DNA from: Micromonospora sp. KC213
Lineage (GTDB): Bacteria; Actinomycetota; Actinomycetes; Mycobacteriales; Micromonosporaceae
NCBI RefSeq assembly: GCF_004348325.1
Contig: NZ_SMKF01000012.1
Span: forward strand, 1 to 64,000
Direction of reading: 5' to 3'
DNA length: 64,000 nucleotides
The notes under the pieces are model-generated. The model did not search any database and had not been told where the DNA came from. It saw only the letters and a program-made list of their open reading frames with translations. Below are positions 52,807 to 56,915 of the stretch, piece after piece. A program made the translations under genes and the position numbers. The first letter of the stretch is position 1; each line of letters starts with the position of its first letter.

Positions 52807-52986
52807 TTATCGATTCTTAGAGAGCGTGGATGCGGCCACCCCAATCCCGAGCACGGCCGGAATGCCAGCTACGAGCCCCATCCACAAAGGGTGACCCGTG
52901 ATCAAACAGTAGACCAAGGCCGCAGGAACCCATGCCACAGCAATGCCCAGCACGATCCTGGCGGCCTGACTCTTAATTCCGTTCAC
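52807..52986 (-). CDS. Small two-helix membrane protein at the RHS locus
   Basis: A 59-aa protein too short for many callers: VNGIKSQAARIVLGIAVAWV, then a second hydrophobic stretch GLVAGIPAVLGIGVAAST. The GTG at 52986 overlaps the stop of the preceding small frame (GTGA), so they are coupled. The region is more AT-rich than its surroundings. Its place downstream of an RHS gene suggests an immunity or accessory role, by inference. Confidence 0.5.
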   Translation of the reverse strand: MNGIKSQAARIVLGIAVAWVPAALVYCLITGHPLWMGLVAGIPAVLGIGVAASTLSKNR

Positions 52987-53096
52987 CCTGGAATGCGCCC
53001 CTCAATCTTATGCATACCAGCACTCCGACGTTCTGACACGTCCATGAACCGTTCGGCGGCCAACACGATGGGGGTGACTGACAGGAGGGCAACCAC
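52983..53096 (-). CDS. Very small ORF at the RHS locus, possibly membrane-associated
   Basis: A 37-residue frame with one hydrophobic stretch (VVALLSVTPIVLAAERFM) and a charged tail (SERRSAGMHKIEGRIPG). Its stop overlaps the next start. The GTG at 53096 is preceded by AGAAGGAA at slightly long spacing. It could be the surviving end of a larger small-membrane-protein gene. Confidence 0.35.
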   Translation of the reverse strand: MVALLSVTPIVLAAERFMDVSERRSAGMHKIEGRIPG

Positions 53097-53118
53097 CAGC
53101 CAGAAATTCCTTCTATAA

Positions 53119-53355
53119 TCATTTTATTTCTCTTGGCCGCAGGCGGCGGGCGCGTCGATACCTTGCTACAGCAACGCCCATGTGCCACGTCGCTGCGACC
53201 TCGTGCTCCACTGTCCATCTTCGCGAGATCCAGTCGTTACCCAGTAACCAACGATCGCTCCACGAGGAATTCCGGGGCTCCCTGGAGACCGGGCAGGCGG
53301 TGCGGCATTCGCGCTTCTCGCCGGAAGCGGCCCCAGGTGACTTAACTATCTCCAC
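53119..53355 (-). CDS. Small ORF of unknown function at the RHS locus
   Basis: A 78-residue Trp/Arg-rich frame (SWSDRWLLGNDWISRRW, then a basic tail) with GTG 53355 after AGGAGAGG. No family is recognised. Codon bias is weak, so this may be spurious or recently acquired. Confidence 0.35.
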   Translation of the reverse strand: MEIVKSPGAASGEKRECRTACPVSREPRNSSWSDRWLLGNDWISRRWTVEHEVAATWHMGVAVARYRRARRLRPREIK

Positions 53356-53431
53356 CTGGAGCCTCTCCTGCCATCTACTTACTCAGCCCGCTCCCGGGAA
53401 TCGCTCTCGAGCATGAAGGGCTTGCGTCATC

Positions 53432-53641
53432 TCATGACCTACGGTCCGGGTCTCGCGAAATATGCGGTGCCACGTACAGTAACGCCGGAACTGCTACCAG
53501 CCCGATGACACCCATGACAACCACGGCTCCCACCTTTCCTACACCAAGGGCTCCACTTAAATATCCAGCCGCAACAAACAACACTGCAAACAGGAGAACC
53601 AGCACTCCGAATGCTCGCGCCGAAGGCCGACGTCGAAACAT
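53432..53641 (-). CDS. Small two-helix membrane protein directly downstream of the RHS tip
   Basis: A 69-aa protein. A basic start MFRRRPSARAFG leads to two hydrophobic helices (about 11-30 and 36-58) and a charged end. The ATG lies nine bases after the RHS stop, and AGGAGGG between them is an excellent ribosome-binding site. Position and topology fit an immunity protein for a membrane-active RHS tip, by inference. Confidence 0.7.
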   Translation of the reverse strand: MFRRRPSARAFGVLVLLFAVLFVAAGYLSGALGVGKVGAVVVMGVIGLVAVPALLYVAPHISRDPDRRS

Positions 53642-53650
53642 TAAACCCTC

Positions 53651-54421
53651 CTAGTGGGAACCCCAATAATATGCGACTCCGAACATGAATCCGAAGGCTC
53701 CGAGGAAGATCCCGGCGAATGCACCTGCGGCGAGACAACCAACGCCTGCAGCAAAGGCACCGACAGCGCAGCCGACCGCACCGCCGATTGCAACTCCGGC
53801 AGTAGCGAACTTTCCTCCGTAGTCGATTGCCTCCACGAAGGGATCATCGTGGTCGAAACCTGTAGGATCGGTGTAATTCACAGGGTTGCCGGCCGCGTAG
53901 GCGTACCGGTTGCCCTTTTGGGGGTTGCCGATGAAGCTGAGGTTGTCCTGCTGGGTGAAGCGCCCCTGCACCGGGTTGTACCACCGCTGCCCGAACTTCG
54001 TGAACCCCGTCGTCCAGTCGTACGTCCCACCGGCATATCGGATCAGGCTCGTCTGCCCCAGGAAATACTCATCCGCCACCGCGCTCACACCGTACGGGTC
54101 GTACTGGTGCGTCGCCACCTTCGTCCCGTCGGCCCGCACGATCGCCACCACCGACCCGAGCCCATCCAACACGTACGCGTGATCCGTGCCGTTGATCCGC
54201 AACCCCAGCGGCGTGCCGATGCCGTCGCGCTCCACATAGGCGGTCGAGCCATTGAACGTCCAGGACTGCAACCACGGCATCCCGTGCTGGTCCTCCATGC
54301 CGTACTGCATGGTCGCCGTCGCGTTCCGGGTCAGCTCTACCTGGTCGCTGCCGGCGTAGCCGTAGCTCGCAGAGTTTGCGCCAACCATCTGCTTGGCGCT
54401 GTTGTACGTCATCGGGTTCAC
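53651..54421 (-). CDS. RHS-repeat protein, C-terminal segment with glycine-rich tip
   Basis: This 256-residue frame continues the RHS core of the upstream frame. It has YD-type repeats and then the RHS-associated core block (QYDPYGV, QRWYNPVQGRFTQQDNLSF, NRYAYAAGNPVNYTDPTGF near residues 110-190). After the PTGF boundary comes a 65-residue variable tip, strongly hydrophobic and glycine-rich (AIGGAVGCAVGAFAAGVG...). That tip looks like a glycine-zipper membrane segment rather than an enzyme. Its start ATG is internal to the original gene; a one-base shift near 54435 separates it from the rest. Confidence 0.7.
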   Translation of the reverse strand: MNPMTYNSAKQMVGANSASYGYAGSDQVELTRNATATMQYGMEDQHGMPWLQSWTFNGSTAYVERDGIGTPLGLRINGTDHAYVLDGLGSVVAIVRADGTKVATHQYDPYGVSAVADEYFLGQTSLIRYAGGTYDWTTGFTKFGQRWYNPVQGRFTQQDNLSFIGNPQKGNRYAYAAGNPVNYTDPTGFDHDDPFVEAIDYGGKFATAGVAIGGAVGCAVGAFAAGVGCLAAGAFAGIFLGAFGFMFGVAYYWGSH

Positions 54422-56793
54422 CGACGGGTGACTGGTGCAGCCTGGTTACCCCGACCGTCGTAGCTGTTGTTGGCGGTGGTGATCTGGTTGGCGGAATTGA
54501 AGGTCAGGGACTGGGTGGTGGTGCCGTCGACGGCGACACTCATGCGGTTGCCGTTGCTGTCGTAGGCGTACTCGTAGGTCTTGCCGTGATGGTTCGTGGC
54601 CTTCGTCAGCCGGTTCGCGTCGTCGTAGTCGTAGCGAGTGACCGCGCCGCTGACCTCGTCCCTCTGCCACTGCCGCAGACCGGTGTCGTCGCCCTTCTCG
54701 GTGGAGCAGGGCTGGCCGGCGACGTACTCGGCGTGGCAGTAGGTGACGTCGTGGACCGTCGCCGGGCTGGCCGAGTTGCGGGTGGCGGTGATCCGGGTGG
54801 GCCGGTCCGACTCGTCGTACGTGGTCCTGATCCGCAACGCCCACGCGCTGTTGGTCTCGTTGGTGGCGAAGTACGTGTGGGTGCGGTTGCCGTTCTTGTC
54901 GTAGAGGAAGTTGTAACGGGTGCCACCGGCGGTGTCCATGCGCACCAGCCAGTTGCGGGAGTTGTAGTAGTACCGCGTGGTGCCCCGCCCGTCGGTCAAC
55001 TGGACCAGATTCCCCACCGCGTCCGGCACGTACTTCAGGATGCCACCACCCGGGTTGGTGCGCTCGCGGAGCCGGTTCAGCGGGTCGTACGACCAGGTGG
55101 TGGTGCCGGTGGCGTCGGTGCGGGTGAGCAGGTTGCCGGTGCCGCCGTACTCGAAGGTGACCGGCGGCTGGGTGCCACAGCCAGAGTAGGCGATCTCCAT
55201 GACCCGGTCGTCGGGGCTGTAGGTGTAGCTGGTGGTGCAGCCGTCCGACACGGTCTTGAGCCGGCCGTAGGGGTCGTAGGTGAAGGTCTTGACCGCCAGG
55301 TTGTTGCCGGTCGGCGGGGTGAGCTTGGTCAGCTGCCTGCTGTCGTCGTACCTGTAGCTGGTGGGGTTGTCGTCGTTGGCCGGGTCGGTGGAGGTCTTCA
55401 CCGTGCCGTCGTCGTGGTAGTCGACCTTCGCCTCGGCGGCCATCGCGTCGGCGGTGGAGGTGCGGTTGCCGGCGCCGTTGTAGGTGTAGGTGGAGCTGTT
55501 GCCCTGGGTGTCGATCGAGGACGACGGCTGGAAGTTCGCCGTCGGGTTCGTCGACGTCGCCGCGTTGGCGTACGCGGCCGACGCGCTGGCGCCGGTCGGC
55601 GAGGCCGACTTGGTCAGCGACTCCCCCGCGTTCGCGCCGTAGGTGTTGGTGACCGTGCCGCCCTCGGGGCTGACCGAGGTGGCCACGTCGTGGAACGGGG
55701 TGTACGTCTTGCTGCGCTCGTTGCCGGCCGGGTCGGTGGTCTTGGTGACCCGCTTGTCGGCGTTGATCTCGTACGTGGTGTGCGGCACCGAGGCGATCGG
55801 TTGGGACAGGTCCTGCCGGGCGTCGGCCACCTGGGTCTGGGTGGAGCTGGGGTACGCCAGGCGGGTCGTCGAGCCGCGCATGGTGGCGATGTCGGTGACC
55901 TGGGTGAACGAGGTGACCCGGTGCTGACCGTCGTAGGTGATGGTGATGTACGTGTTGTCCTTCGTGGTGATCTTCGTCAGGTCACCGGCGGCGTCGTACT
56001 CGAACATCACCTTGCGCCAGGTCGGCGACTGGATCGTCTGCAACCGGCCCAGGCTGTCGTAGGCGTACGACACCTCCCGCCAGCTGCCGTCGCTGCCAGT
56101 CTGCCGGTACTTGCCGATCTTCCCGGCGGTCCAGGTCGCCGCCGCCGTACGCGCGGCGGTCGGGCCCCGGTCCGAGGTGATGGTCGTCATCTGCCCGCCG
56201 CTGTAGGTGACGTCGGTGACGTTGCCGTTGCGGTCCTCGGTCTTGTCCAACAGCCCGTCCGAGCCGAAGAACAGCTCCTTGCCGCTGCCGTGCTCGGTGA
56301 GCTTCCAGCCGGAGCCGTCGCGCGCCAGCGTCGCCTTGAACTCCTTGGGCGACGAGTAGCCGGAGGCCGACTCGGTGAACCTGCCGACCACGCCGTCGGC
56401 GGCGGCGTGGGTCACCGACCCGTCGTCGGCTGGGTACAGCCGCACGTCCTGGCCGGCCCGGGTACGCCAGCCGGGGCCGTGCGCGCCGGTCTCCAGGTCG
56501 CTGTCGAGCAGCAGGCTGTTGAAGGTCGCGCCGATGGTGACGTTCTCCGCGACGCCGGGCAGCGTCAGCTCGGTGCTGCGCAGCATCAGGTTCCCCGACC
56601 CGACGTTGATCTTTGCTTCGAGGCGGTCGCTCAGTGAGAACGACAGCTCGGTGGCGTTGCGGACCGGACCGGTCCCCTTCGGCACCGACGGGGCCGCCCC
56701 CGCGGCGGCCGCGGTGCGCGATGCCCGGCGGTCGGGGGTGTCGAACAGCCACATGGTGGACCTCGACATCGGCGACACCACCGGATCGCCCAC
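54418..56793 (-). CDS. RHS/YD-repeat protein, main body
   Basis: A 791-residue open frame of YD repeats from about residue 175 on, such as YDSLGRLQTIQSPTWRKVMFE, YDPYGRLKTVSDG, YDPLNRLRERTNPGG and YDSNGNRMSVAVDG. It is preceded by an RHS N-terminal beta-domain (LSFSLSDRLEAKINVGSGNL...). Such repeats wrap into a hollow cocoon around a C-terminal toxin. The frame closes at 54418 after NQAAPVTRR because of an apparent frameshift. Its own first ATG is inside the original gene, after the signal peptide. Confidence 0.8.
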   Translation of the reverse strand: MGDPVVSPMSRSTMWLFDTPDRRASRTAAAAGAAPSVPKGTGPVRNATELSFSLSDRLEAKINVGSGNLMLRSTELTLPGVAENVTIGATFNSLLLDSDLETGAHGPGWRTRAGQDVRLYPADDGSVTHAAADGVVGRFTESASGYSSPKEFKATLARDGSGWKLTEHGSGKELFFGSDGLLDKTEDRNGNVTDVTYSGGQMTTITSDRGPTAARTAAATWTAGKIGKYRQTGSDGSWREVSYAYDSLGRLQTIQSPTWRKVMFEYDAAGDLTKITTKDNTYITITYDGQHRVTSFTQVTDIATMRGSTTRLAYPSSTQTQVADARQDLSQPIASVPHTTYEINADKRVTKTTDPAGNERSKTYTPFHDVATSVSPEGGTVTNTYGANAGESLTKSASPTGASASAAYANAATSTNPTANFQPSSSIDTQGNSSTYTYNGAGNRTSTADAMAAEAKVDYHDDGTVKTSTDPANDDNPTSYRYDDSRQLTKLTPPTGNNLAVKTFTYDPYGRLKTVSDGCTTSYTYSPDDRVMEIAYSGCGTQPPVTFEYGGTGNLLTRTDATGTTTWSYDPLNRLRERTNPGGGILKYVPDAVGNLVQLTDGRGTTRYYYNSRNWLVRMDTAGGTRYNFLYDKNGNRTHTYFATNETNSAWALRIRTTYDESDRPTRITATRNSASPATVHDVTYCHAEYVAGQPCSTEKGDDTGLRQWQRDEVSGAVTRYDYDDANRLTKATNHHGKTYEYAYDSNGNRMSVAVDGTTTQSLTFNSANQITTANNSYDGRGNQAAPVTRR

Positions 56794-56915
56794 ATGTCCC
56801 GGCCGTGCGCGGGTGCCGGCGCGGCCGTCGCGGGACGATCGGTGGCCGGAACCACCAGCACCGACGCCACCAGCAGCGCGGACGTCATCGCCAGCGCCGT
56901 TCTACGTAGACCCAT

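What the first reader, a model, noticed from the sequence alone, without database searches (positions are those of the whole stretch)
52807..56915. Secreted RHS locus with a glycine-zipper-like tip and a cluster of tiny downstream genes
Sequence shows an RHS core ending in PTGF, then a 65-residue hydrophobic Gly/Ala-rich tip. It is followed by four small leftward frames, of which those at 53432 and 52807 are clear two-helix membrane proteins and the last two overlap by GTGA. The RHS tip/immunity layout of polymorphic toxins is established; here the tip would be a membrane-inserting toxin and the small membrane proteins its immunity, which is inference. The region is more AT-rich than its flanks.
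Basis: partly seen in the sequence, partly recalled or inferred. Interest (0 to 1): 0.62.

Follow-up and report, generated by a model that had tools for sequence, protein, structure and literature searches.

The report
Caged membrane mini-toxin with tiny immunity
A Micromonospora-type bacterium carries a gene for a hollow secreted protein whose last 68 residues look like a miniature membrane-piercing toxin, followed by a tiny membrane protein that probably protects its owner; relatives carry the same layout with different tips, nearly all with paired cysteines, so they look like one overlooked group of antibacterial weapons.

Summary
On the minus strand the Rhs core ends in DPTG (53869-53858). 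A 68-aa Gly/Ala-rich tip follows (53857-53654), then a 69-aa two-TM protein (53641-53432) behind an AGGAGG overlapping the stop. Related actinobacterial Rhs proteins keep the core and swap tip and small gene together: 51 tip/small pairs co-vary (Mantel 0/5000), and 42/60 short-tip Rhs stops have a two-TM mini-ORF close behind, against 0/158 and 0/42 control stops (overlapping sets). New here: paired cysteines. Of 46 tip families 45 have an even count; 41 representatives have exactly two, 4 to 72 residues apart. Best reading: an exported Rhs cocoon carrying a disulfide-closed glycine-zipper peptide that permeabilises the target membrane, neutralised by a basic two-TM immunity protein. No activity was measured. 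Corrections: the window's Rhs frame is broken twice (near 56.8 and 54.43 kb), so this copy may be dead or misassembled; the 59-aa ORF and the other small frames have no specific relatives in the searches made. Closest known: Tse5/Tsi5, the BiTLP C-terminal domain, Tox-WTIP. New variant of a known kind.

The parts
56820..56915 (-). start of the Rhs gene: ATG and signal-peptide-like N terminus, in a different frame from the core (frame change near 56.8 kb)
   Evidence: sequence; similar N termini in relatives; no signal-peptide predictor was run
54418..56793 (-). main Rhs core frame: DUF6531 N-plug and YD repeats
   Evidence: PF20148 29.1 bits (cut-off 24.1), PF05593 132.7 bits (cut-off 22); 72-82% identical to four relatives
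53858..54421 (-). core C-terminal part in the next frame, ending DPTG; Asp pair at 53947-53945 and 53869-53867
   Evidence: TIGR03696 64.5 bits; Asp pair at 58 and 59 of 60 core ends and in 24 of 24 rows of A2
53654..53857 (-). 68-aa hydrophobic tip, Cys30 and Cys41, proposed membrane toxin
   Evidence: strong relatives in L052 and in the second copy of L053
53432..53641 (-). 69-aa two-TM protein, proposed cognate immunity
   Evidence: AGGAGG overlapping the Rhs stop; relatives directly behind related tips; codon-position differences 17/9/36 in 59 codons against L053
52983..53096 (-). 37-aa frame with a hydrophobic stretch (below the TM threshold used), overlapping the next ORF by GTGA; status unclear
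   Evidence: no relatives in the fetched loci
52807..52986 (-). 59-aa two-TM ORF, possible orphan immunity gene; unproven
   Evidence: no specific relatives

Best explanation
This is one member, with a damaged reading frame in this assembly, of a large actinobacterial group of secreted Rhs polymorphic toxins whose tips are not enzymes but membrane-active peptides of about 50-110 residues. The Rhs chain is exported by a signal peptide and folds into a YD-repeat cocoon (shown: domain hits; model and fold match of a relative; export inferred from the N terminus). The conserved Asp pair in the C-plug cuts behind DPTG, and the tip stays inside the cocoon (inferred from Tse5 and RhsA). Outside the cell the two cysteines of the tip form a disulfide (inferred from an even cysteine count in 45 of 46 families). 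On contact with a neighbour the acidic, Gly-zippered peptide inserts into its membrane, oligomerises and depolarises it (inferred). The next gene makes a small basic two-TM protein with positive tails and a near-neutral loop, which sits in the producer's membrane and blocks the matching tip (pairing shown by co-variation; blocking inferred). Tip and immunity gene move together as cassettes between conserved cores.
For: 42 of 60 short-tip Rhs stops have a two-TM ORF of 36-110 aa starting within -40..+130, against 0 of 158 and 0 of 42 control stops (the two control sets overlap). Later set: 14 of 25 short tips against 0 of 17 long tips; with one TM or more, 21 of 25 against 1 of 17. Co-variation: at z>8, 18 of 19 related small-protein pairs also have related tips; Mantel 0/5000; partial r 0.745 given core identity. 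Cassette exchange: the core end is 98% identical to that of L054, whose tip is unrelated (z 1.2), while L052 and L053 share both tip and 69-aa protein. Cysteines: 57 of 59 distinct discovery tips even, 24 of 25 in the later set, 45 of 46 families; among 15 other residues the largest excess is His, 40 against 34.5 expected. Mean net charge of 84 tips -3.3; of 47 two-TM proteins N-tail +1.9, loop +0.15, C-tail +2.5. Rhs cocoon: relative L081, mean pLDDT 80.8; fold match Tse5 8cp6 E 5.3e-43, RhsA 7q97 8.2e-44. Precedents: Tse5/Tsi5 (PMC9637101, PMC10684867, passages); BiTLP-CTD permeabilises E. coli when exported (PMC13018210, section 8).
Against: No toxicity, cleavage, disulfide or protection was measured. 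The window copy is broken in two frames, so it may not make the protein. 9 of 60 short-tip stops have no TM ORF in the range searched: L058 and L077 have a soluble ~102-aa ORF instead, L063 and L070 a two-TM ORF further off (+213, +166). The zipper signal of this single tip is weak. Hydropathy by a 19-residue window is crude. The first Asp is not in a DPXG context and lies 26 residues before the second; in DPXGX18DPXG it would be 22. Even cysteine counts are a trend of exported proteins (about 64% in mycobacteria, PMC12421883 abstract), and the Rhs cores here are also mostly even (32 of 44), so parity speaks for disulfides more than for toxicity. Several related tips have unrelated small proteins (for example L054/L071, L061/L071; of 34 related tip pairs at z>8 only 18 have related small proteins).
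Confidence: 0.78

Rival explanations
1. The two-TM protein is not immunity but a partner of the tip: a membrane chaperone or anchor needed to export, hold or assemble it, or the second subunit of a two-part pore.
For: Pairing and co-variation would also follow from an obligate partner; complementary charge; two-peptide glycine-zipper toxins exist (CdzC/CdzD, PMC5380434, passages).
Against: The small proteins are short basic hairpins by hydropathy, like the small cationic hydrophobic immunity proteins of circular bacteriocins (PMC6131525, passages). A 63-aa two-TM gene, 97% identical in L063 and L053, stands near two unrelated tips, as expected of orphan immunity genes. Neither point excludes a partner; where the small proteins sit was not tested.
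Confidence: 0.13
2. The tips are not toxins but membrane anchors or remnants left where a catalytic toxin was lost, and the small genes are unrelated membrane proteins.
For: The window copy is frame-broken; short hydrophobic ends could be anchors.
Against: Separate tip families keep length, even cysteines and mostly a membrane neighbour; tip and neighbour change together; codon positions show selection on the 69-aa gene.
Confidence: 0.06
3. This copy is a decayed locus: the system is real elsewhere, but here only tip and small genes persist as an orphan or pseudogene. (Compatible with the best explanation, so the odds do not add up with it.)
For: Two frame changes while two long Rhs frames of the same genome are open over 2599 and 2059 aa; short, orphan-like or broken frames are common in the group (14 of 60 under 350 aa, the window included).
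Against: A draft of 363 contigs can carry indel errors; tip, 69-aa gene and ribosome-binding site are intact.
Confidence: 0.5

Closest known systems
Tse5/Tsi5 of Pseudomonas aeruginosa (Rhs pore-forming T6SS effector)
   Same: DUF6531 plug, YD cocoon, Asp protease plug, membrane-inserting C terminus, cognate immunity protein with two predicted TM regions (PMC9637101, PMC10684867, passages)
   Different: Here a signal-peptide-like start and no T6SS domain among the Pfam hits of the chain; tip 50-110 residues instead of about 16 kDa; paired cysteines; many unrelated tips in one Rhs group. Tip-to-tip similarity with Tse5 was not tested
BiTLP C-terminal domain of Bacillus inaquosorum (Teneurin-like protein)
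   Same: Short (92-aa) hydrophobic tip in a YD shell of a Gram-positive; permeabilises E. coli when exported; a gene stands downstream of almost all such genes (PMC13018210, section 8 and passages)
   Different: Teneurin fold with FN-plug and NHL; a tip cysteine is bonded to the plug, not within the tip; no family of swapping tips with two-TM partners in the parts read
Tox-WTIP and the two-TM Imm17 and Imm-CdiI (2012 survey)
   Same: Two-helix hydrophobic toxin domain on RHS and other carriers; two-TM immunity families (PMC3482391, passages)
   Different: WTIP is defined by RxxR and Wx[ST]IP and restricted to proteobacteria in that paper; the window tip has neither motif
CDI ionophore toxins
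   Same: Polymorphic membrane-depolarising tips with highly polymorphic, specific immunity (PMC11630599, abstract)
   Different: Predicted five-helix bundles with separate entry domains, on CdiA
Circular bacteriocins
   Same: Up to about 70 hydrophobic residues; small cationic hydrophobic immunity protein; several tips here have cysteines near both ends (PMC6131525, passages)
   Different: Closed by a peptide bond, no Rhs carrier, mostly cationic

Membership tests
Rhs/WapA polymorphic toxins | YD repeats and Rhs-associated core domain | tested here: met
   PF05593 132.7 bits; TIGR03696 64.5 bits, cut-off 32.5
Rhs/WapA polymorphic toxins | N-terminal plug DUF6531 | tested here: met
   PF20148 29.1 bits, cut-off 24.1
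Rhs/WapA polymorphic toxins | cocoon fold | tested here: met
   AF2 model of the intact relative L081 matches Rhs shells in PDB; not run on the window's own broken chain
Rhs/WapA polymorphic toxins | variable tip behind a conserved core | tested here: met
   98 pairs with core ends at least 80% identical, 11 with related tips at z>7
Rhs/WapA polymorphic toxins | Asp protease motif DPXGX18DPXG | tested here: inconclusive
   both Asp conserved (58 and 59 of 60; 24 of 24) but the first context is QQDNLSF in the window and the spacing is 26, not 22
Rhs/WapA polymorphic toxins | cognate immunity gene directly downstream | tested here: inconclusive
   a co-varying small gene is there; protection itself was not tested
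Rhs/WapA polymorphic toxins | one intact open frame | tested here: not met
   two frame changes in the window; 43 of 60 core ends lie in frames of 950 aa or more. This bears on the state of this copy, not on its descent
Rhs pore-forming toxins (Tse5-like) | membrane depolarisation | not testable with these tools
   needs an experiment
Rhs pore-forming toxins (Tse5-like) | two-TM immunity protein | tested here: inconclusive
   two TM stretches by hydropathy in the 69-aa protein; immunity not tested
Tox-WTIP | RxxR and Wx[ST]IP motifs | tested here: not met
   absent from the window tip by inspection
Circular bacteriocins | head-to-tail peptide bond and DUF95 partner gene | not tested
   considered only as an analogy

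The most novel reading that the evidence does not exclude
Actinobacteria hold a large, undescribed class of Rhs-caged mini-toxins: dozens of unrelated membrane-inserting peptides of 50-110 residues, each closed by its own internal disulfide (short loop or end to end), each with its own small basic two-TM or one-TM immunity protein, exchanged as cassettes between conserved secreted cores. They would be disulfide-closed counterparts of circular bacteriocins delivered by a contact-type carrier.
Probability: 0.65. Interest if true: 0.75.

Novelty: new variant of a known kind. Interest (0 to 1): 0.66.

Why it matters
The 2012 survey of polymorphic toxins named one pore-forming domain among over 150 toxin domains (PMC3482391, abstract and passages). 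If the reading is right, one Rhs group of actinobacteria alone carries dozens of membrane-active tips that domain searches miss because they are short, hydrophobic and fast-changing. The paired-cysteine and tiny-neighbour rules make them findable and give ready toxin-immunity pairs for testing how a two-TM protein recognises one membrane peptide and not another.

Tried and rejected
Reading the Rhs locus as one intact gene: rejected, two frame changes. The 59-aa ORF as conserved immunity: one search gave 24 of 300 genomes at E<=0.01, own included, but the others are weak (4.4e-4 or worse) and, in all rows shown but one, lie inside long frames (466-852 aa), so they look like composition matches. 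Pfam/NCBIfam for tips and small TM proteins: none over its cut-off among those tried. Empty-site test through the neighbouring aldo/keto reductase: only 4 of 61 genomes, own included, hold it at the threshold, so uninformative. Structure of the window tip alone: two helices (6-36, 39-66), mean pLDDT 64, too weak to use. The first two regular-expression searches for core ends found two and none; tblastn replaced them. One script returned nothing because of a bad option and was repeated.

Rows dropped: of 81 core ends, 60 were kept (tip 50-110 aa and an NRY.Y-like motif). Of the 21 dropped, most have long or very short tips; L116 (clostridial, hydrophilic 68-aa tip, one cysteine) was also named for exclusion, and the motif filter lost L115_6462, a short tip with two cysteines. 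In one search, 47 loci were given; 44 core ends came out: 25 short, 17 long, 2 under 45 aa; 42 of the 47 loci are in the printed tables. Exceptions to even parity: L053_5582 (5 cysteines; its frame departs from the window tip before the end), L113_2481 (3), L184 (1, not tip-like). One tip, L107, has none and counts as even. The later set is not free of kinship: 84 tips of both sets fall into 46 families, some holding both. Long tips as a control: cysteines in the last 67 residues 0 (8), 1 (2), 2 (4), 3 (2), 4 (1). Control stops are long GC3-rich ORFs, not curated genes, and the window's own stretch is in both control sets.
Full report
Observation. The window lies in contig 33 of a draft of 363 contigs. 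Its genus holds the genome G156, whose contigs match Micromonospora marina DSM 45555, so it is taken as Micromonospora. On the minus strand an Rhs gene starts at 56915 with a signal-peptide-like N terminus, continues in another frame as a core of DUF6531 and YD repeats (56793-54418) and changes frame again near 54.43 kb before the core end. Four relatives, 72-82% identical over the main frame, align on both sides of the second break; the first break rests on the position of the start and the N termini of relatives. The breaks are therefore indels or assembly errors. Two other Rhs frames of this genome are open over 2599 and 2059 aa, which leans towards a real lesion but does not prove it.

The pair. 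Behind DPTG come 68 residues, two hydrophobic stretches with Cys30 and Cys41, then a TAG that overlaps AGGAGG and, 9 bases on, the ATG of a 69-aa two-TM protein. In 300 genomes of the family, own included, the 69-aa protein has two strong relatives (E 2.6e-20 and 3.6e-10), both directly behind tips related to this one. Eight further genomes have weak hits (1.5e-4 to 0.01), in longer frames. Differences by codon position are 17/9/36 over 59 codons, which fits a coding gene under selection.

The group. Similar core ends were taken from family genomes and from named genomes (Micromonospora, Actinoplanes, Asanoa, Streptomyces, Blastococcus, Actinomadura, Cellulomonas, Curtobacterium, Leifsonia and others). 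After filtering, 60 core ends in 54 loci remained. A two-TM ORF of 36-110 aa starts within -40..+130 of the Rhs stop in 42 of 60, against 0 of 158 stops in the same loci and 0 of 42 in the window (overlapping sets); with a ribosome-binding site required, 31 of 60 against 0 and 0. With one TM or more, 51 of 60 against 5 of 158 and 0 of 42, and with a binding site 38 of 60 against 1 and 0. Nine of 60 have none in that range.

Co-variation. Over 51 tip/small pairs, tip and small-protein similarity correlate (r 0.75; Mantel 0 of 5000), also at given core identity (partial r 0.745). At z>8, 18 of the 19 related small-protein pairs have related tips; the reverse is weaker, 18 of 34, so tips can keep similarity while the small protein diverges or is swapped. 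Of 98 pairs with core ends at least 80% identical only 11 share a related tip. More than one short-tip core end stands in 5 of 54 loci, resembling the Rhs orphans described elsewhere (PMC12704120, passages).

Cysteines. Distinct discovery tips have 0 (1), 2 (45), 3 (1), 4 (11) or 5 (1) cysteines. Tip cysteine frequency is 3.3%, core 0.5%, small proteins 0.8%. A second set, found afterwards in 394 genomes of the class (stretches), gave 25 short tips not in the first set: 21 with two, 3 with four, 1 with one. Together 84 tips form 46 families; 45 have an even modal count, and 41 representatives have exactly two (binomial p 6.7e-13 if even and odd were equal). Of fifteen other residues none comes near this; the largest excess is His, 40 even against 34.5 expected. 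Spacings run from 4 to 72, so the pairs arose or moved repeatedly, which argues for a disulfide inside each tip and thus for the tip acting as a separate unit. Even counts are a trend of exported proteins (about 64% in mycobacteria; PMC12421883, abstract), and the cores here are also mostly even (32 of 44), but not to this degree.

Mechanism. The profile of the group matches Rhs shells by sequence (including RhsA 7q97 and Tse5 8cp6) and by fold. In the model of L081 the shell is confident (most ten-residue blocks above 80) and the tip is not (21-30), in line with an unfolded cargo or with too few related tips. Both catalytic-type Asp residues are kept, in a shifted motif. Tse5 is a caged Rhs pore former whose immunity protein has two predicted TM regions (PMC10684867, PMC9637101, passages), and the 92-aa BiTLP tip permeabilises E. 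coli when exported and does not inhibit growth when it is not (PMC13018210, section 8). Glycine-zipper toxins with membrane immunity proteins are known in T7SS and type I systems (PMC12744356, PMC5380434, passages). Hence the commitment to a membrane-depolarising tip and a two-TM immunity protein; insertion, cleavage and protection are inferred.

Novelty. Searches for Rhs with glycine zipper, Tse5, Micromonospora, disulfide, Streptomyces, two transmembrane and small membrane listed no title or abstract start describing this group; most subscription papers are not held, and most listed papers were not opened. Parts are known one by one; the combination (secreted actinobacterial Rhs, short tips, internal cysteine pairs, tiny TM partners, cassette exchange) is a new variant of a known kind.

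Noticed in passing
L077:5027-5332, L077:7458-7751, L073:6367-6663, L062:5989-6285, L074:5536-5829: A soluble protein of about 100 aa, of which the L077 copy has no Pfam or NCBIfam hit at E<=0.1, recurs downstream of several of these Rhs genes.
   Followed up: partly
L078, L079, L080, L087, L108 (tips of 101-104 aa): A second, less hydrophobic tip type with four conserved cysteines is paired with a 41-42-aa one-TM protein; L102 and L103 share the tip type but not the partner.
   Followed up: partly
L063:4914-5102 and L053:6250-6438: A 63-aa two-TM-like gene, 97% identical, stands near two unrelated tips, like an orphan immunity gene.
   Followed up: no
L060 (core end 4631, frame 225 aa): N terminus and N-plug run straight into the core end and tip, a natural mini-Rhs without most of the shell.
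   Followed up: no
L058, 102-aa ORF at +58 of the Rhs stop: DUF1499 protein (30.1 bits, cut-off 22.6) instead of a membrane protein behind a short tip.
   Followed up: no
two-cysteine tip families: Cysteine spacings cluster as short loops (4-12) and near full-length spans (45-72), the latter linking both ends of the peptide, with some in between.
   Followed up: no
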